Below, piece after piece: positions 33,036-63,327 of a stretch of 64,000 nucleotides of DNA. The notes beneath the pieces were generated by a model that ran no database searches, had not been told where the DNA came from, and saw only the letters and a list, made by a program, of their open reading frames with translations. The position numbers were made by a program, and so were the translations under genes. Where the stretch lies: assembly GCF_011682235.2 (NCBI RefSeq), contig NZ_CP076718.1, forward strand, positions 4,185,095 to 4,249,094, given 5' to 3'. The stretch comes from Rhodocaloribacter litoris (lineage in GTDB: Bacteria > Bacteroidota > Rhodothermia > Rhodothermales > ISCAR-4553). How positions within the stretch are numbered: the stretch's first letter is position 1; every line of letters starts with the position of its first letter.

Positions 33036-34266
33036 CAGGGCGAGCGCATTCTAAATTCCGACGATCTGCGCCAGGAAGGCATCGTCCCAACCGGCCCGTT
33101 TTCGCTTCATGCGCAGACTCAACCGCTTCGTTTCGTCCTTGCGCAACAGGTTGAGCGCTAGCTGCCGCACCACCGCCATGTTCTGCCCCCCGTGATCGCG
33201 CCGAATACGGCTCTCATCCTCCCGAAACACCACATCGAGCACCCAGTGCAGCTGATTCTCAATGCCCCAGTGACTCCGGATGATATCCAGCATCTGCTCC
33301 GCTGTGGTCGCGAGGCTGCTGATGTAGAAGCGGCGCTCCAGACTCACGCCCTGCTGCGTGTGGCGCTCGTGTTCGACCATCACGAGGCTGTTCAGGTCAC
33401 GCCACGCCTCGGCCTTGGGCACCCAGGCCACATCGGTCGAGATCCACAGCCGACGCACTTCCTTGCGCCCGTGCCCCAGGTCACAGCGCTCCGCGTAGGC
33501 GACCGGCATCGCCCGCCAGTGCCGCGTGCGCCCCTGCTCGAAGTAGGCCCGCACCTCACGGTGGAGCAGGCCCTGGTTGCCCTTCAGGGCCAACACGTAG
33601 TCCGCCCCCTGCGCGCAGATCGCTTCGGCAATCTCGGTCTGCGTGCCCATCGCATCGAGCGTCACAATGCAGCCTTCGAGGTCCAACACCTCCAGAAGCG
33701 CCGGAATCGCGGTAATCTCATTGCTCTTGGCCGAGACCTTCTCTTGCGCCAGCACCAGATGCTGCTCACACGCCCAGGCCGAGATCATGTGCAGGGCGGC
33801 CTTCGGGTCGTCTTTGTCGTAACTGCGGCGCAGCGTCTTGCCATCGATGGCAATGACCTCGCCGGCCGTCTGTTGGGCCAGCGCCTCCACCCAGCGTACG
33901 AAGCCGCGGGCGAAGGCCTCCGGGCAGATGGCGGCCAGGACGCGGCGGAAGGTGTCGCCCGAGGGCGTGCCATGTTTGAGGTCGAGCCGTTGGGTCAGCC
34001 AGGAGACTTTGGCCTGGGCGAACGTGGCGATGTCATCCCAGCCCTCAGCACCGGCAACAACGGCACAGAGGGCGATCACGAGCACGTGCTCGAGCCGGTG
34101 GCGTTTGCCCTGATCGCGTCGGGGGTCCTCAAGGTGGTCAAAATAGCGAATAAAGCAGGTCTCAGACATGAACGGAGGGGAGCAAACTGGAACGGCTGAC
34201 GAACCGGCACAGCTTACGACATCCCAGGCCATTAACACTAGCCTATTTTAGAATGCGCTCGCCCTG
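33036..34266. mobile_element. ISAs1-family insertion sequence, complete
   Basis: 1,231 bp. The two ends form a perfect 20-bp inverted repeat beginning CAGGGCGAGCGCATTC (33036-33055 and, reversed, 34247-34266). The element is flanked by an 8-bp direct repeat TATTCCAG (33028-33035 and 34267-34274), which is the target duplication. A single transposase gene fills it on the minus strand. Intact ends, duplication and gene argue for a recent insertion. Its right end lies 14 bp from the -35 box of the tRNA-tuf-rpo promoter. Confidence 0.95.
33051..34169 (-). CDS. ISAs1-family transposase
   Basis: 372 residues from the ATG at 34169 (MSETCFIRYFDHLEDPR); the frame is open 23 codons further upstream toward the IS end without a better start. 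Family hallmarks: DHLEDPRRDQGKRHRLEHVLVIALCAVVAGAEGW at the N-terminus, VIAIDGKTLRRSY, VTLDAMGTQTEIAEAI, DYVLALKGNQGLLH and SHWGIENQLHWVLDVVFREDESRIR. The last contains the DDE-fold acidic residues. The TAG stop lies inside the left inverted repeat, as is common in compact IS elements. No frameshift or internal stop is seen, so the enzyme is probably active. Confidence 0.95.
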   Translation of the reverse strand: MSETCFIRYFDHLEDPRRDQGKRHRLEHVLVIALCAVVAGAEGWDDIATFAQAKVSWLTQRLDLKHGTPSGDTFRRVLAAICPEAFARGFVRWVEALAQQTAGEVIAIDGKTLRRSYDKDDPKAALHMISAWACEQHLVLAQEKVSAKSNEITAIPALLEVLDLEGCIVTLDAMGTQTEIAEAICAQGADYVLALKGNQGLLHREVRAYFEQGRTRHWRAMPVAYAERCDLGHGRKEVRRLWISTDVAWVPKAEAWRDLNSLVMVEHERHTQQGVSLERRFYISSLATTAEQMLDIIRSHWGIENQLHWVLDVVFREDESRIRRDHGGQNMAVVRQLALNLLRKDETKRLSLRMKRKRAGWDDAFLAQIVGI

Positions 34267-43835: not shown

Positions 43836-43927
43836 TTGCGGAATGCGGAATGCGGGAGGCGGGGCGGCCCGGGGTCGCGCCGCCTCCCGACGACCCCATC
43901 CGAAATCCGAAATCCGAAATCCGCAAT
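43835..43927. repeat. Inverted heptamer-repeat hairpin between rpoB and rpoC
   Basis: The left arm contains tandem GCGGAAT units (43838-43851). The right arm contains three TCCGAAA units and one TCCGCAA (43899-43926). The ends ATTGCGGA and TCCGCAAT are an 8-bp inverted repeat, and an inner stem CGGGAGGCGG (43853-43862) pairs with CCGCCTCCCG (43880-43889). The element fills almost the whole 97-bp gap. It is not a terminator, since no T-run follows and rpoC must be transcribed. Similar heptamer arrays occur scattered in several GC-rich bacterial phyla (from memory), without an agreed function. Confidence 0.7.
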
Positions 43928-43932
43928 CGATC

Positions 43933-56639: not shown

Positions 56640-58259
56640 CTAGTGGCCGGGGAAGCCCAGGCTTTCGAGCATCAGGTGGATGGCCCGGCGGGGGGCTTCG
56701 GGATCGCCGTCGGCGCCGGCGAGCAGGGCCCCCCCCGTCTGTTCGTTGACCATGGGCAGGGCAAAGAGGCCCACCCGGCGGTCGGCGCTGAGCGAGGCGA
56801 CGGTGTTCGGCCCGGGCCAGTCGCCCTGCCGGCCGTCCCGGGTGCGAAAGCGGTAGGCTCCCTCGTAGAGGGGGATGATGTTGACGCTCTCGGCGTCGTA
56901 GGGTAGCTCGTTGATGAAGAAGCGTTGTGCGACGAGGGGCGGCAGGGGTACGCCGGGGCCCGGTACCGGCTCGACCGGTGTGATGGCCGCACCGTTGCTC
57001 AACTCGAGCCGTCCGATCGAGTCGGGCAAGGCTGTCAGATCCCGGATGGGCAGCAACAGGATGGCCGCGTTCCCCAGGTTGTCTTCCGGGTTCGTCGGCA
57101 GGGTGATCGGGGTGTGGACCATCAGCTTGCCACCCTGCTCGAAGAAGGCATCCATGACGGAGGCTGCCAGCGGCAGGTTGTTGCCCTGAATGCGGTTGGT
57201 GGCGTTTGTGGTTACCCAGTAAATGTATTTGAACAGGAGGAGCGTTTCGCGGAGTGTGGGTTCAGCCTGCGGCGGCAGGGCATCGGAGCGTGGCGTATTG
57301 CCGGCCGAACCGGTGGCGAACGGCCGGGAGAGGTCCCAGGTATCGATGGGGGTGCCGGGGGGCAGGTAGTCCCGGAGGAGTGCCAGGTGATAGGCCTGCA
57401 CGGTGGGTGCCGTCGCCTTGCGGTAGTCGTTTACGTAGAGCACCTCGCTCGTTGGCTTCTTGACGTACCAGGTGAAGCGCTGCAGGGTGCTGGTCGTGTC
57501 CGTCTGGTCGACGGCACGGAGGTAGAACGTGTTGTCTGCGTTGAGGTGCAGGCCCGGTACAGTGATGCCCGTGGGCTGGAATGCGAGGCCCGAGAAGACG
57601 CGGGCTTCCGAGGGAGATGGTCCCGGGTCGTTCCGGTCGAACGTCCCGACCAGGGTGATGAAGTCGATATCCGGAGGCAGGGCCACGAACGTCGTACTGT
57701 CGTTGAGGCTGATCTCGATGCGGTCGAGGTTGCCGGGGCCTTCAGGGTCGCTGGCCCGCCAGGCAAAGGAAAAGACGGTGAAGGTCGTGTCGGGTGGCAG
57801 GTCGAACGTGTTGAGGGAGATGGCCGGTGGGCTGTTCTGGATGGGAAAGACGGTGCGGGCGGGTGTCGGGTCCTTGAGCCCGTCGTTGTCGATGGCACGT
57901 ACCTCGAACGTGACGTCGGCGATGCGTTCGCCGCGTGGAATGGGCAGGAGCACCAGGGAGTCCGTGCGCGTGGTGGTTGTCCATCCCTCTTCTGGATCGG
58001 GCCGGTCGCCCCGGGCAAAGAAGCGCAGTTCGTAGGCCGCCACAAAGCCGTCGGGATCGGTGCCGCTCCAGGAGACGAAGACGGTGCTCGTGAGCCGTTC
58101 GGCACCGGCCAGGTTGTCCACGAGGGAGGTGTCGCGGACGCTCAGGGTGGTCTCCGGCGGCTGGTTCTCGAAAGCGACTCCGCCGAAGTCGGCATCGCAA
58201 CCGGCCGAGAGAACGAGCACGAGCGTGAGGAAAAGCGCTATGGTACAACGGAGGGGCAC
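56640..58259 (-). CDS. Large lipoprotein with FN3-like N-terminal domains
   Basis: 539 residues. A GTG start at 58259 opens MPLRCTIALFLTLVLVLSAGC (lipoprotein Cys21); no ATG would preserve the signal. The first ~270 residues look like two Ig/FN3-type domains (ENQPPETTLSVRDTSL, VFVSWSGTDPDGFVAAYELRFFARG; FSFAWRASDPEGPGNLDRIEISLND). The second half (EVLYVNDYRKATAPTVQAYHLALLRDYLPPG; FFEQGGKLMVHTPI) resembles alpha/beta domains that follow such modules in Rhodothermus-type lipoproteins, function unknown. It directly precedes the TonB receptor (65 bp), suggesting a surface partner. Its 5' flank is the octamer-repeat array at 58263-58342. Confidence 0.75.
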   Translation of the reverse strand: MPLRCTIALFLTLVLVLSAGCDADFGGVAFENQPPETTLSVRDTSLVDNLAGAERLTSTVFVSWSGTDPDGFVAAYELRFFARGDRPDPEEGWTTTTRTDSLVLLPIPRGERIADVTFEVRAIDNDGLKDPTPARTVFPIQNSPPAISLNTFDLPPDTTFTVFSFAWRASDPEGPGNLDRIEISLNDSTTFVALPPDIDFITLVGTFDRNDPGPSPSEARVFSGLAFQPTGITVPGLHLNADNTFYLRAVDQTDTTSTLQRFTWYVKKPTSEVLYVNDYRKATAPTVQAYHLALLRDYLPPGTPIDTWDLSRPFATGSAGNTPRSDALPPQAEPTLRETLLLFKYIYWVTTNATNRIQGNNLPLAASVMDAFFEQGGKLMVHTPITLPTNPEDNLGNAAILLLPIRDLTALPDSIGRLELSNGAAITPVEPVPGPGVPLPPLVAQRFFINELPYDAESVNIIPLYEGAYRFRTRDGRQGDWPGPNTVASLSADRRVGLFALPMVNEQTGGALLAGADGDPEAPRRAIHLMLESLGFPGH

Positions 58260-58262
58260 GGG

Positions 58263-58342
58263 GTGTGTTGGTGTTTGGGTGTGTGGGTGTTTGGATGGTT
58301 GGGTGTGTGGGTGTGTGGGTGTTTGGGTGTGGGGGTGTGGGA
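58263..58342. repeat. Tandem 8-bp GTGTKTGG array, left flank of the S23-type gene
   Basis: Ten consecutive 8-bp units, mostly GTGTGTGG or GTGTTTGG with single changes (ATGGTTGG, GTGTGGGG, GTGTGGGA). The array starts 3 bp from the start codon of the lipoprotein gene and ends 4 bp from the stop of the S23-type gene. Related units occur in opposite orientation on the other side of that gene. Confidence 0.85.
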
Positions 58343-58346
58343 GTGG

Positions 58347-58775
58347 TCAATCGATTTCGGGTGCCGAATCGGGGGAATAGGGTACGGGTTCTTCGCGTAA
58401 CCGGGCAGGGCCGCACCATGTGTCTCGGTGCTGCATCATGCCCACGAGACCGCTGGCGATGGCTTCGTACGTCGCGTCGAGTTTGCCGTGTTGTTCGGCA
58501 GACAGATAACCACAACGAAGGGCCATATCCAGCCAGCTCTGTGTTTCGGCCACTTCGGCGTCGGCGTCGGTCAGCTTGCTGACGAAATGGTTCGGGTATC
58601 TCCTTTTGCGCCATGCTTCAGCGATGTTGGCGCACACGGAGCGTGAGGAACGTCGGATCTGATCGGTCAGCGCATAGCGCTCTTCGACCGGCCAGGCCTT
58701 CGAGAGCACAAAGAGGTGCATCGAAGCCTCCAGCGCCTGCTGGTAAACCCGGAGTTCCCTGAAATGCCGAACCAT
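58347..58775 (-). CDS. Four-helix-bundle protein, S23/23S rRNA intervening-sequence type
   Basis: 142 residues from the ATG at 58775 (MVRHFRELRVYQQALEASM). The family core is clear: LRVYQQALEASMHLFVLSKAWPVEERYALTDQIRRSSRSVCANIAEAWRKRRYPNHFVSKLTDADAEVAETQSWLDMALRCGYL, predicted as four antiparallel helices. Relatives were first seen inside 23S rRNA intervening sequences of Leptospira and are related to the Avd accessory protein of diversity-generating retroelements; nucleic acid binding is likely but the role of stand-alone copies is unknown. There is no rRNA gene or retroelement here. The gene interrupts a run of surface-protein genes and is flanked by inverted octamer repeats, as if it were part of a small inserted cassette. 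Confidence 0.85.
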   Translation of the reverse strand: MVRHFRELRVYQQALEASMHLFVLSKAWPVEERYALTDQIRRSSRSVCANIAEAWRKRRYPNHFVSKLTDADAEVAETQSWLDMALRCGYLSAEQHGKLDATYEAIASGLVGMMQHRDTWCGPARLREEPVPYSPDSAPEID

Positions 58776-58814
58776 CACACCGTATATGGTTTGCTTACAG
58801 CCTTCTCGTCCCCC

Positions 58815-58843
58815 ATCTCCAACCACCCCCACACCCCACACAC
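58815..58843. repeat. Right-flank octamer repeats, inverted relative to the left array
   Basis: On the + strand CCAACCACCCCCACAC followed by CCCACACACC; on the minus strand this reads GTGTGTGG and GGTGTGGGGGTGG, the same unit type as the left array but in opposite orientation. It ends at the stop codon of the upstream tail-domain gene. Confidence 0.7.
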
Positions 58844-61054
58844 CTACTTCATCAACAACATCGTCCGGGTCATCACCTGCGAGCCGGCCGTGAGGCGGTA
58901 GACGTACATGCCACTGGCCAGGTCACGTGCGTCGAACGTGACGGTGAACGAGCCCGCCGGCTGCTCGCCGTTGACCAGGGTGGCGATGCGGCGCCCCAGC
59001 AGGTCGAAGACCTCCAGCGACACGCGACCCGTGCGAGCCAGCTCGTACCGGATCGTCGTCTGCAGGTTGAACGGGTTGGGGAAGTTCTGGTGCAGCGCGT
59101 ACCGTGCAGGCAGCGTCTCGTCTTCCGTGGCCACATTGACCACGGTGCCGACGTCGGTAGCCAGGTCCTCCGGCTCCAGCTTGTAGTTGCCGAAGGTGTA
59201 CCACCAGATACCCTGGATGAAATCATGGGTGTCGCCGACGTTGAAGAATTCGCCCGCGAAATTGTTCGTGAACGAGATGGCCTGAGAGGCATCATCGGCA
59301 CGGACGGCGTTTTCGGCGGTGCCGTCCGAGGAGAAGGCCCATTCACCGAAAGGTCCGGCGGGGTCGTCCGGATTGACGCTCGTGATCGTCACATTGTCGA
59401 AGCGGAGCAGCATGCCCTCGTGCGCCTCCGCAATGTTCTCGTCCTGGAGCACGTCGGTCGTGACGGTCTTGTAGCCATAGAACGCGTTCGGTCCCGCCGT
59501 GATCAGTTCGAAGGTGATGTTCTCTAGGCGCGTCAGGCCGAAGCTTTCGGCGATGGTGGCGTTTGTGATGCGAATCTCGTCGCCACGTTTCAGGGTCGCC
59601 GCCAGGTCGCCCGAGGCCTGGATGGCGATGCCCGTCCAGGGGTTGAGATCGGCATCGTCCTGAACGGCGATCAGGCCGGAGAGGTCGGGTTGCGACTGCA
59701 CGATGACCGTCAGGTCCATGTCGGTCGTCAGGCCGACGAAGGGGCTGTCGCCCGGGCCGCCGTCGATGGTCTCCTGGATGTCGGCGATCTCGTTGATCCC
59801 TTCGTAGAGGACCCGCGTTACCTGTACGGGCTCCGACGGGATGACGGCGCCGTCGGTATCGGTGACCTCGACGAAGTAGGTGACGAACGTCCCGTCAGGC
59901 TGTGTCGGGATCTCGCCGGTATAGGTGACGCCCCCATCCGTGCTGCTCATGGCGACGGTCTGGGTGCCGGTGGCCGCCGAGGTTTCATAGACCAGGTTGA
60001 CGGCCGCAATATTGGCCGGGTCGCTGCTGAAAGTGACCGTGATCGGGATGGGGCTTTCACCCGGCACGCCGTCCGGCCCCGAGACGCTCTCGATGACCAC
60101 TTTCGGTGCCGCCGTGATGACGAGGTCTTCATCCGCCCACGGCGTAATCTTCAGCATACCGGCCGGCGGCGCACCGATGGCGAAGGGGTCAAAGTCACTG
60201 CGCAGGAGCGCGAAACCCTGCACGGTGACGATAGCACCCGGCGGCGGGGCCTCGAAGTCCGTCTCGCGCTTGTCGAACGTATCCGGGTAGTTGTCCCGGT
60301 CGTTGCGATAGCGGAGGGAGATGTCATCATTCTGGATGATGACATTGTCGTCGATGAGGGCCCAGTTGGGGCGGTCGTCTGTGCGGTTGGGCGAGCGCCA
60401 GACGACCACATTCTCGATGCGTACGTACTGCTGGTTGAGGCTGTTGAAGTTGGCCCAGTTGGCCTGGATCTGGAACGCATCTCCGGAGCCCAGATTGCGG
60501 TTGATATCGCCGATGGTTACCGTGACCGGGTCCAGCAGGTCGGCCGGCAAGCCCAGGTCGGTGTAGAAGCCCAGCGGTTCGATCGTCTCCGGGGTGATCT
60601 GCAACGTGGTTCCGAAATAGGTGACGTCCCCGGTGATGGTGACGACGTCGCCCTTGAAGAGGCTGAGCGAACCGGTGGTCTGATAGTCACCGTCGACGAT
60701 CTGGATGTCCATGCCGGCCGGGCCCAGCGACGCGGCCGAGGTGTCCCGGACGAAGTAATGAACCCGGCTCGGATTGACGCCGTCTCCGCCGATACTCGCA
60801 AGGCCGGACTTGTTCGGTTCGGCCAGCACGACGGCGGTGAAGCGCACTTTCTGCCCGTTGAGGGGCGAGCGGATATAGGTGGTGATGTCGTCAAAGGTCA
60901 GGTCGGTACCCCGGGCGAGTACCTGGTCGATGTTTTCCTGCGGGATGGCGTTGATCTCCCGCACGGTCACCTCCACGGGGTCCTGTGCGGCGGCCTCGCG
61001 GGCGAGGCCGAGCAGGAGAAACAGGGCGAAAAGAGTCGTAAAGGTTCGTCGCAT
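58844..61054 (-). CDS. Secreted multidomain protein with T9SS-type sorting tail
   Basis: 736 residues from the ATG at 61054 (MRRTFTTLFALFLLLGLAREAAAQ, signal peptide); the frame is open 86 codons upstream without a credible start. Two or more OB-fold-like segments are suggested (NGQKVRFTAVVLAEPNKSG..; VRIENVVVWRS; TLKRGDEIRITNATI; GMLLRFDNVTITSVNPDD), similar to DNA/metal-binding domains of extracellular nuclease-like proteins, but no nuclease site is visible. An Ig-like region (PKVVIESVSGPDGVPGESPIPITVTF) lies between them. The C-terminal ~90 residues are a textbook Por_Secre_tail (YALHQNFPNPFNLQTTIRYELARTGRVSLEVFDLLGRRIATLVNG..). Exported and probably attached to the surface; function unknown. 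It lies 89 bp downstream of the next tail-domain gene. Confidence 0.83.
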   Translation of the reverse strand: MRRTFTTLFALFLLLGLAREAAAQDPVEVTVREINAIPQENIDQVLARGTDLTFDDITTYIRSPLNGQKVRFTAVVLAEPNKSGLASIGGDGVNPSRVHYFVRDTSAASLGPAGMDIQIVDGDYQTTGSLSLFKGDVVTITGDVTYFGTTLQITPETIEPLGFYTDLGLPADLLDPVTVTIGDINRNLGSGDAFQIQANWANFNSLNQQYVRIENVVVWRSPNRTDDRPNWALIDDNVIIQNDDISLRYRNDRDNYPDTFDKRETDFEAPPPGAIVTVQGFALLRSDFDPFAIGAPPAGMLKITPWADEDLVITAAPKVVIESVSGPDGVPGESPIPITVTFSSDPANIAAVNLVYETSAATGTQTVAMSSTDGGVTYTGEIPTQPDGTFVTYFVEVTDTDGAVIPSEPVQVTRVLYEGINEIADIQETIDGGPGDSPFVGLTTDMDLTVIVQSQPDLSGLIAVQDDADLNPWTGIAIQASGDLAATLKRGDEIRITNATIAESFGLTRLENITFELITAGPNAFYGYKTVTTDVLQDENIAEAHEGMLLRFDNVTITSVNPDDPAGPFGEWAFSSDGTAENAVRADDASQAISFTNNFAGEFFNVGDTHDFIQGIWWYTFGNYKLEPEDLATDVGTVVNVATEDETLPARYALHQNFPNPFNLQTTIRYELARTGRVSLEVFDLLGRRIATLVNGEQPAGSFTVTFDARDLASGMYVYRLTAGSQVMTRTMLLMK

Positions 61055-61143
61055 GGCATGCTCCGTGTTGGGTTGAAAGGAAATCGTGTGGTGCGGGAGG
61101 CGACGCCCGGCGCCGGGCGCCCCGGTCGCACCACGAACCGGTG

Positions 61144-63327
61144 TTATTTGATGATGACGAACTTGCCGCGCTGGACCTCGCCCGTGTCGAGGTTCTTGAC
61201 GGTAAACAGGTAAAGGCCGGGGGAAATATTCAGCCCGTTCTCGGAGAGGATGTCCCACGAGTGTTCGCCGCCGGGGAGCTGCCGGTTCTCGGCGCTGAAG
61301 TTGTCGTACCACCGGATGTCGCCCCGGTAGGTCCCGGCCTCGTGCCGCATCTCCTTGACGATTTCACCGGCCAGCGTGTACACACGGATCTCGGCGCGGG
61401 GGGGGAGATTGTAGAAGTTGAGCCGCCGGGTGCGGTTGGTGCCCCCGTCCCAGGCGGCGCCGGCGCGGTACGGGTTGGGATAGACGCCCACCCGGCGCGC
61501 GCCCTCCGGGTCCGGCGGGGTGCCGGGAAAGACGCGGGTGGCGTTGGCCGTGCGGGACGACTCGAACGACGGCAGCCCGGCGTCGGGGTCGCCTTCGTCG
61601 AAGGCGGTGACGATGAAGAGGTACTGCCAGCCGGCGAGCAGGTCCTCGGCTTCGAACCGGTACCAGTATTCGGTTGGATCGTCGGGGAACGTGACGGGCT
61701 CCTCGAGCGCGATCTCGTCGAAGCCGTTGTTGAAGCCGGTGCGGTTGCCGGGGCGGTCGTACTGGGCAATCAGGGTGGCGCGGTCCAGGATGTTGCCGGC
61801 GCGGTCGTCGCCGGGGTTGCTGCGGTAGATGCGGTAGCCTTCGAAGTCGAGCCGGCCGGTGACGGGATCACGCGACAGTTCAGCGGTGCGATCCCAGTAC
61901 AGGACAACCTTCGCCTTCTGCCGTCCGGTGGCGGGGTCGATGTCGTTCTCGAAGGCGACGCGCACACGGGGGGCCGCCGGCGGCTCGGGGATGAGATAGC
62001 GGTCCAGCACCCCGTTGCCGTTGACGTCTTCGCCGGGGTCGAGCGTGCCGTTGAGGTTGTTGTCCTCGCCGGCATAGGTGCGCCGGGCCCAGGCGATGTT
62101 GTTGGCCAGCAGCGCCCGGCTCTCGGGGGTGTCGACGGGCTTGCCGGCCTGTCCCTGGAAGGCTTCCGGCTTGAGGGCGGCGACGACGGCGTAGGTCACC
62201 GTCAGCGTGTCCCCGGGAGCGACACGGGGGAAGGGGCCGATGGGGGTCAGCCCGATCCAGTTGCCGGCGGCGTTCTGCCCGTCGGTGCGCAGCCGCTCGA
62301 ACCAGGCCGCCCGTGCCGCCTCGAAGTCGACCGGATTCGGGAAGGCGTCGGGGTTGGGGAAGGGGGTGGCCATGCGCCGGTAGCGTTCCTCGTCGGAAGC
62401 CGGGCGGGCGAGTTCGTCGAGGCCGCCCGAGAAAAGCCACCAGCGGGGGTTTACCTGCGGCCGGGGCAGGCCCTCGGCTGCGTAGGCCTCGGCCAGGGCG
62501 GGGTGGAAAAAGCGCTTCCGACCGGCCGTGGGGTCCGGCCATTCGGCCCCCAGGAAGACGATGGCGCCGTAGGTGTTGAGGGTCTCTTCATTGCCGCCGG
62601 CGTTGAAGGCGTAGGAGGCGTACAGGCTGTCGATGAACCCGTAGCCGCCCTTGTTGAAGAAAGCACTGCCGCTTTCGGTCGTCGTGTTGACGTTGCGCAC
62701 GACCAGGTCGTGGTACATACCCACGTAGACGTTGTCCCAGGCCGCCTCGCTGATGTTGATGATCTTCCAGTTGAGGATGACGAAAAACTCGGTGAAAGGG
62801 AAGTTCCATGCGAACGTTTCCATCTCCACCTTCATGCCGAGCCGCCCCCGGGGGTCGGGCATCTGGATGGAGGTGCCCGGCAGCACGGCGGCCGTGTCGA
62901 CGAAGGCGGCCAGGTAGTCCTGGTGGCTGACGGCGCTGCGGGTGAAGACCTCGGAGGTGGGCAGGGTGGATCGTTCGAGCAGCGGCGTCAGCTGGGCGAA
63001 CTCGTAGCCGGTGGCGCCGGGCCGGTAACCACCGGCCGCCGTGACGGCTCCCGTGCGCACCGTGATCACCCCGTCGCTGCGGACGGCCCCTACCCAGAGC
63101 CCCGACTCGAACAGGTGCTCGACGCCCGAATCGAGCGGGTATTCCATCGACGGCGGGCCGGTGGGGTTGTTGCGCACGTTGGCCCGCCCGATGAAGCCCG
63201 CATTGGTCACCGTCAGCCCGAGGTTGCCCACATCCACCACTGCCTCCTCGAACGAGGCCGTCTGTGCACGACCGTGGAGCGGCAACAGGAACAGCAGGAG
63301 CAGGACCGGAACGGCAAGGTGCTTCAT
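61144..63327 (-). CDS. Large secreted protein with EF-hand-like and FN3-like segments and sorting tail
   Basis: 727 residues from the ATG at 63327 (MKHLAVPVLLLLFLLPLHGRAQ, signal peptide). The N-terminal half is an unrecognised beta-rich region (LWVGAVRSDGVITVRTGAV; NWKIINISEAAWDNVYVGMYHDLVV). A calcium-type stretch (EDNNLNGTLDPGEDVNGNGVLDRY) precedes an FN3-like part (LYWDRTAELSRDPVTGRLDFEGYRIYRSNPG). The C-terminus (VGVYPNPYRAGAAWDG; IRVYTLAGEIVKEMRH; LNISPGLYLFTVKN, ending GKFVIIK) is a sorting tail. It shares this plan and several motifs with the protein at 1992-5288. It appears to be the first gene of the minus-strand surface series. Role unknown. Confidence 0.83.
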   Translation of the reverse strand: MKHLAVPVLLLLFLLPLHGRAQTASFEEAVVDVGNLGLTVTNAGFIGRANVRNNPTGPPSMEYPLDSGVEHLFESGLWVGAVRSDGVITVRTGAVTAAGGYRPGATGYEFAQLTPLLERSTLPTSEVFTRSAVSHQDYLAAFVDTAAVLPGTSIQMPDPRGRLGMKVEMETFAWNFPFTEFFVILNWKIINISEAAWDNVYVGMYHDLVVRNVNTTTESGSAFFNKGGYGFIDSLYASYAFNAGGNEETLNTYGAIVFLGAEWPDPTAGRKRFFHPALAEAYAAEGLPRPQVNPRWWLFSGGLDELARPASDEERYRRMATPFPNPDAFPNPVDFEAARAAWFERLRTDGQNAAGNWIGLTPIGPFPRVAPGDTLTVTYAVVAALKPEAFQGQAGKPVDTPESRALLANNIAWARRTYAGEDNNLNGTLDPGEDVNGNGVLDRYLIPEPPAAPRVRVAFENDIDPATGRQKAKVVLYWDRTAELSRDPVTGRLDFEGYRIYRSNPGDDRAGNILDRATLIAQYDRPGNRTGFNNGFDEIALEEPVTFPDDPTEYWYRFEAEDLLAGWQYLFIVTAFDEGDPDAGLPSFESSRTANATRVFPGTPPDPEGARRVGVYPNPYRAGAAWDGGTNRTRRLNFYNLPPRAEIRVYTLAGEIVKEMRHEAGTYRGDIRWYDNFSAENRQLPGGEHSWDILSENGLNISPGLYLFTVKNLDTGEVQRGKFVIIK

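What the first reader, a model, noticed from the sequence alone, without database searches (positions are those of the whole stretch)
58261..58843. Four-helix-bundle gene flanked by inverted octamer arrays: a possible small mobile cassette
The S23-type gene is bordered on the left by ten GTGTKTGG units and on the right by the same unit type in opposite orientation, and it splits a run of surface-protein genes. S23-type proteins are linked to rRNA intervening sequences and, through Avd, to retroelements. Inverted simple-repeat borders with a nucleic-acid-binding-type helical protein could mark an undescribed element that inserts between genes and leaves repeat arrays.
Basis: partly seen in the sequence, partly recalled or inferred. 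Interest (0 to 1): 0.68.

Follow-up and report, generated by a model that had tools for sequence, protein, structure and literature searches.

The report
S23 gene between inverted repeat arrays
A small helical-protein gene sits in the loop of two mirror-image arrays of short repeats, and the same arrangement, with a different repeat word at almost every site, surrounds many relatives of this gene across bacterial phyla, which points to a repeat-hairpin element that I could not find described.

Summary
The gene is absent from the same gene junction in about 25 relatives and present in one sister genus, with arms on both sides. The octamer is not a signature of S23 genes; the arrangement is. In 114 Rhodothermales S23 loci and 78 loci from many phyla, the 5' flank matches the reverse complement of the 3' flank (36/114 and 26/78 at score >=30; about 1% in swapped pairs; 0/52 and 3/115 for neighbouring genes). 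Words are locus-specific, 7- (or 8-) nt periodic, G-rich on the 5' side. S23 proteins are under purifying selection while arms turn over. Such arrays also occur without S23, mostly in genomes that have S23 genes. Best reading: an IVS-like hairpin element with its ORF in the loop, gained or lost as a unit, with S23 acting on or through the arrays. The mechanism is inferred. I found no description of the association in the held library.

The parts
58260..58339 (+). Array of about 10 degenerate GGGTGTKT octamers; lies 3' of the S23 gene (on the gene's strand it is the C-rich arm)
   Evidence: TRF
58347..58775 (-). S23-type four-helix-bundle gene, 142 aa, PF05635/TIGR02436
   Evidence: nearest solved relatives 2gsc 6.7e-9 and 2rld 4.3e-8
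58810..58843 (-). Inverted arm, G-rich on the gene's strand, 5' of the S23 gene and directly after the stop of the upstream gene
   Evidence: (inverted score 37)
56640..58259 (-). Downstream neighbour, 539 aa, signal-peptide-like start; its start codon abuts the left array
58844..61312 (-). Upstream neighbour, T9SS C-terminal sorting domain protein; adjacent to the 539-aa gene in relatives without S23
43836..43931 (.). S23-less inverted heptamer-type hairpin in another spacer of the window (comparison)

Best explanation
This is an IVS-like hairpin element. An S23-type ORF lies in the loop between two inverted arms made of degenerate 7-8 nt repeats, filling the space from one gene's stop codon to the next gene's start codon. 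Shown: at many S23 loci in many phyla the arms are inverted, locus-specific in word, 7/8-nt periodic and G-rich on the 5' side; the unit is present in some genomes and absent from the same site in relatives; the S23 protein is under purifying selection; such arrays also exist without S23, mostly in genomes that carry S23 genes. Inferred: the transcript forms a long stem with the ORF in the loop, as rRNA intervening sequences do; the arms grow and turn over by slippage or template switching within the hairpin, which tends to keep both arms on one word; the S23 protein (its solved homologue 2gsc is a ring of five four-helix bundles) binds the arm hairpins and promotes, tolerates or protects them, at its own locus and at S23-less arrays.
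For: Inverted flanks: 36/114 order loci >=30 against 1.1% of swapped pairs and 8/114 in direct orientation; 26/78 across phyla against 1.4%; 11/41 with one locus per genome against 1.2%; neighbouring genes 0/52 and 3/115, own-genome genes 1/281. Polarity: 5' GC skew above 3' in 104/114 and 61/78. Lag-7 periodicity z 4.5-7.5 in all four flank sets, absent in the control. Presence/absence of the unit. Arm words differ between species around an orthologous S23 gene, and match within some species. dN/dS 0.08-0.20. Genome-level link between arrays and S23: two CGTTGAA words in 24/52 S23+ against 4/62 S23- genomes; AGTTNNN arrays in 96/235 against 5/61. RNA fold z=-4.45.
Against: About half of the S23 loci show no significant inverted arms (for example 3295629 in the own genome). 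Most arrays in the own genome have no S23 gene. Within-species arm matching at Salinibacter site A is modest (own 22.3, cross-species 17.8 on average; four of seven species do not match best with themselves). Genome-level associations are not corrected for phylogeny. There are no binding, transcription or movement data, so every step about S23 protein action is inference.
Confidence: 0.45

Rival explanations
1. Safe-harbour insertion: inverted word arrays arise in spacers by a process that has nothing to do with S23, and S23 genes (mobile by some other route) settle or survive preferentially in their loops because this harms neither neighbour.
For: Many S23-less arrays exist, several as G-first hairpins with no gene in the loop. 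G-first polarity follows from the palindrome alone. In Salinibacter species lacking the gene at site A a short inverted array is present.
Against: At the window site and at Salinibacter site B the empty sites carry no arrays, so arms and gene come or go together. Inverted arrays scoring >=34 are rare in 400-kb samples, few of them repeat-like, in the own genome and in G013, too few to catch S23 genes by chance. Arrays are scarce in S23-free genomes.
Confidence: 0.3
2. Passive spacer decay: the arms are ordinary slippage products that replaced intrinsic terminators; the hairpin is selected as a terminator or RNA stabiliser and the S23 gene is incidental.
For: Empty sites usually hold a terminator-like hairpin, and G000/G001 lack one of that kind. 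Arrays fill stop-to-start spacers.
Against: Other genes with spacers in the same genomes do not have inverted flanks, and the excess at S23 genes extends across phyla.
Confidence: 0.15
3. Classical small mobile cassette with octamer terminal repeats, moved by an S23-dependent transposition.
For: Gene plus arms absent from the site in about 25 relatives.
Against: No shared terminal sequence between S23 loci, octamer arrays elsewhere lack S23, no clear target duplication, orthologous S23 persists at fixed sites in several species.
Confidence: 0.05
4. Retroelement remnant related to diversity-generating retroelements, with S23 as an Avd-like partner of a reverse transcriptase.
For: PF05635 is related to Avd.
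Against: No RVT_1 match in G000, G001, G008 or G013; the Avd model scores far below its cut-off.
Confidence: 0.03

Closest known systems
Intervening sequences (IVS) of 23S rRNA with S23 ORF (Leptospira, Coxiella)
   Same: S23/PF05635 ORF inside an element bordered by complementary sequences that form a stem (PMC4990558); sporadic presence.
   Different: Here between protein genes, not in a 23S rRNA helix; arms are arrays of short words that differ from locus to locus; S23 is under clear purifying selection, whereas the Coxiella ORF is reported to be in reductive evolution.
Intergenic heptamer repeats: GGGAATC of Xanthomonas and GGGGA(C/T)T of Nostoc (PMC4692102), TAACTGA of Beggiatoaceae (PMC4679880)
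   Same: 7-nt tandem repeats in intergenic regions; about 70 convergent inverted pairs in Xanthomonas.
   Different: Those papers centre on one word or word type per genome and do not mention S23 in the searched text.
REP elements with REP-associated transposases (RAYT)
   Same: Intergenic palindromes plus a gene family flanked by them.
   Different: REP sequence is shared within a genome and RAYTs are transposase-like; here words are locus-specific and the protein is a four-helix bundle. Comparison from general knowledge and abstracts, not tested.
Avd of diversity-generating retroelements
   Same: Related four-helix-bundle family (PMC10053308).
   Different: No reverse transcriptase in the own genome; Avd model score far below its cut-off (29 against 80).

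Membership tests
PF05635 / TIGR02436 (S23-type four-helix bundle) | Score above the curated cut-off | tested here: met
   99.5 bits against 33.8; 91.4 against 24
23S rRNA IVS element | S23 ORF within the element | tested here: met
23S rRNA IVS element | Complementary ends that can form a stem around the ORF | tested here: met
   fold with arms paired, z=-4.45
23S rRNA IVS element | Located in a helix of an rRNA gene | tested here: not met
   between two protein genes
23S rRNA IVS element | Excised from the transcript by RNase III | not testable with these tools
   needs RNA
Insertion sequence / MITE | Terminal inverted repeats shared between copies | tested here: not met
   words differ between loci
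Insertion sequence / MITE | Transposase encoded | tested here: not met
   the only supported ORF in the unit is the PF05635 gene; MITEs would not need one
Insertion sequence / MITE | Target-site duplication | tested here: inconclusive
   none evident by eye at Salinibacter site B; repeats obscure the ends
Diversity-generating retroelement | Reverse transcriptase | tested here: not met
   RVT_1: 0 matches in G000
Intergenic heptamer repeat arrays | 7-nt tandem periodicity in intergenic DNA | tested here: inconclusive
   met by S23 flanks as a set (lag-7 excess); the window array itself has period 8

The most novel reading that the evidence does not exclude
S23 proteins are the trans-acting partner of a widespread class of intergenic inverted heptamer arrays: the protein drives or licenses the writing and rewriting of locus-specific 7-nt words in both arms of spacer hairpins, a repeat-generating activity of unknown kind, with S23-bearing loci as the autonomous copies and S23-less arrays as products or remnants.
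Probability: 0.25. Interest if true: 0.92.

Novelty: new variant of a known kind. Interest (0 to 1): 0.78.

Why it matters
PF05635/TIGR02436 genes are common (235 of 296 sampled genomes of the phylum) and, as far as the papers read here say, have no known function; heptamer arrays in bacterial spacers have been reported without a partner protein. The link makes both testable together: a defined protein family, a defined repeat architecture, and close Salinibacter relatives with and without the unit at the same site.

Tried and rejected
GTGTKTGG as the signature of S23 genes: rejected, at least five other sites lack S23 and other S23 genes carry other words; the reversed-pattern control was uninformative because the pattern is nearly symmetric. 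Retroelement origin: no RVT_1 match in the own genome. Conserved transposon ends: rejected. A quick 6-mer repeat count discriminated poorly because its control was mostly coding; replaced by lag periodicity. Gene trees for dating the insertion conflict: the 539-aa protein puts G000 with G008, which lacks S23 at the site, and the 822-aa tree is poorly resolved, so ancestral gain with loss in G008 and other histories stay open. Runs of N in one genome gave false inverted hits, ignored. The flanking-order search around another order failed because the centre must be a G handle; a phylum sample was used. Papers joining S23 genes with repeats: none found in the held library.

Full report
Observation. 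The left array spans 58260-58339 (period 8, about 9.9 degenerate copies, TRF 102-118) with six exact GTGTKTGG units. The right side holds one exact unit in the opposite orientation within about 34 nt of related sequence, 58810-58843. Between them lies a PF05635/TIGR02436 gene on the minus strand, best started at the ATG at 58775, giving 142 aa.

Own genome. It is a single 4.50-Mb contig with five PF05635 matches, four above cut-off. Octamer arrays occur at five or more other intergenic sites without an S23 gene, so the octamer is not tied to S23. However, two other S23 genes lie among different words: CGTTGAAC-type at 347217 and GTGCGTAG-type at 1108425; the second has clearly inverted flanks (score 41).

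Empty site. The flanking genes are adjacent in about 25 relatives of the order, with a spacer of roughly 70-270 nt that usually holds a terminator-like hairpin and no S23 gene. One sister genus (G001) has the S23 gene there (66% identity in BLAST) with arms on both sides. G008, whose 539-aa protein is the closest, lacks it; the two gene trees do not agree on how to date the event.

General test. For 114 S23 loci of the order I aligned 200 nt upstream with the reverse complement of 200 nt downstream. 36 reach a score of 30, against 1.1% of swapped pairs and 8 in direct orientation. With one locus per genome it is 11 of 41 against 1.2%. Of 78 loci from Acidobacteria, Chloroflexi, Bacteroidota, Cyanobacteria, Planctomycetes, Verrucomicrobia and others, 26 reach it against 1.4%; an archaeal locus (L230) scores 29. 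Neighbouring genes reach 30 in 0/52 and 3/115 cases, genes in sampled own-genome DNA in 1/281. The words differ at almost every locus. The 5' flank has a higher GC skew than the 3' flank on the S23 strand in 104/114 loci, confined to about 120 nt. A palindrome reads the same on both strands, so this is a property of the hairpin, not of gene orientation. Flanks show excess identity at lags 7, 14 and 21 (also 8 in Rhodothermales), while control DNA shows only codon periodicity.

Turnover. In Salinibacter (G013 has the chromosome length I recall for S. ruber DSM 13855) two S23 sites were compared. At site A the orthologous S23 gene persists in seven species but the arm word differs between species: CGTTGAA-type in some, GTTGAGGG-type in G090, GGTTGAAGG-type in G084. 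In G090, G084 and G047 the two arms match each other best; in the other four they do not, and the mean excess is modest (22.3 against 17.8). A species 97% identical in the flank lacks the gene and carries a short inverted array with another word. At site B the empty species carry no arms. S23 coding sequences have dN/dS 0.08-0.20, so the protein is kept while the arms change.

Arrays and S23 across genomes. Two CGTTGAA words within one mismatch occur in 24 of 52 S23-bearing genomes of the order and 4 of 62 without (17 against 0 with two or more hits). In a wider sample of the phylum, AGTTNNN arrays occur in 96 of 235 S23-bearing and 5 of 61 S23-free genomes. Neither test is corrected for phylogeny. 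Most arrays in the own genome are S23-less and fill stop-to-start spacers, several as G-first inverted hairpins; the window itself has one at 43836-43931.

Mechanism. The RNA strand folds with the arms paired and the ORF enclosed, the architecture of S23-bearing rRNA intervening sequences (PMC4990558), but in a spacer between protein genes. I infer that the unit is gained or lost as a hairpin, that slippage and intra-hairpin copying tend to keep both arms on one word, and that S23 protein engages the arms. None of these steps is shown. A reverse-transcriptase route is unlikely here because RVT_1 finds none in the own genome.

Novelty. S23 genes, rRNA IVS stems and intergenic heptamers are each known. 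I found no paper in the held library that connects S23 genes with inverted heptamer arrays; most subscription papers and all preprints were not searchable.

Noticed in passing
window 43836-43931: S23-less inverted heptamer-type hairpin filling the spacer between two ORFs that look like rpoB and rpoC (by eye, not searched).
   Followed up: partly
window 33036-33055 and 34247-34266: 20-bp inverted repeat about 1.2 kb apart, as in an insertion sequence; the ORF 33192-34199 on + has no Pfam match.
   Followed up: partly
L389, L391, L395, L402, L404: Own-genome spacers filled from stop to start by CGTTGAA-type arrays, several as G-first inverted hairpins, without S23.
   Followed up: partly
G074:C39, G089:C5, G046:C5: Some PF05635 matches lie in open frames of 500-770 aa, far longer than the domain; not examined.
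   Followed up: no
L399 and L405-L407: CGTTGAA arrays in the own genome and G008 follow nearly the same upstream coding sequence and precede a shared downstream stretch, as if a larger element carried the array.
   Followed up: no
Xanthomonas (PMC4692102; PDB 2gsc): About 70 convergent inverted GGGAATC heptamer pairs are reported in a genus that also has the S23-type structure XCC0516; whether its S23 gene lies in such a pair was not checked.
   Followed up: no
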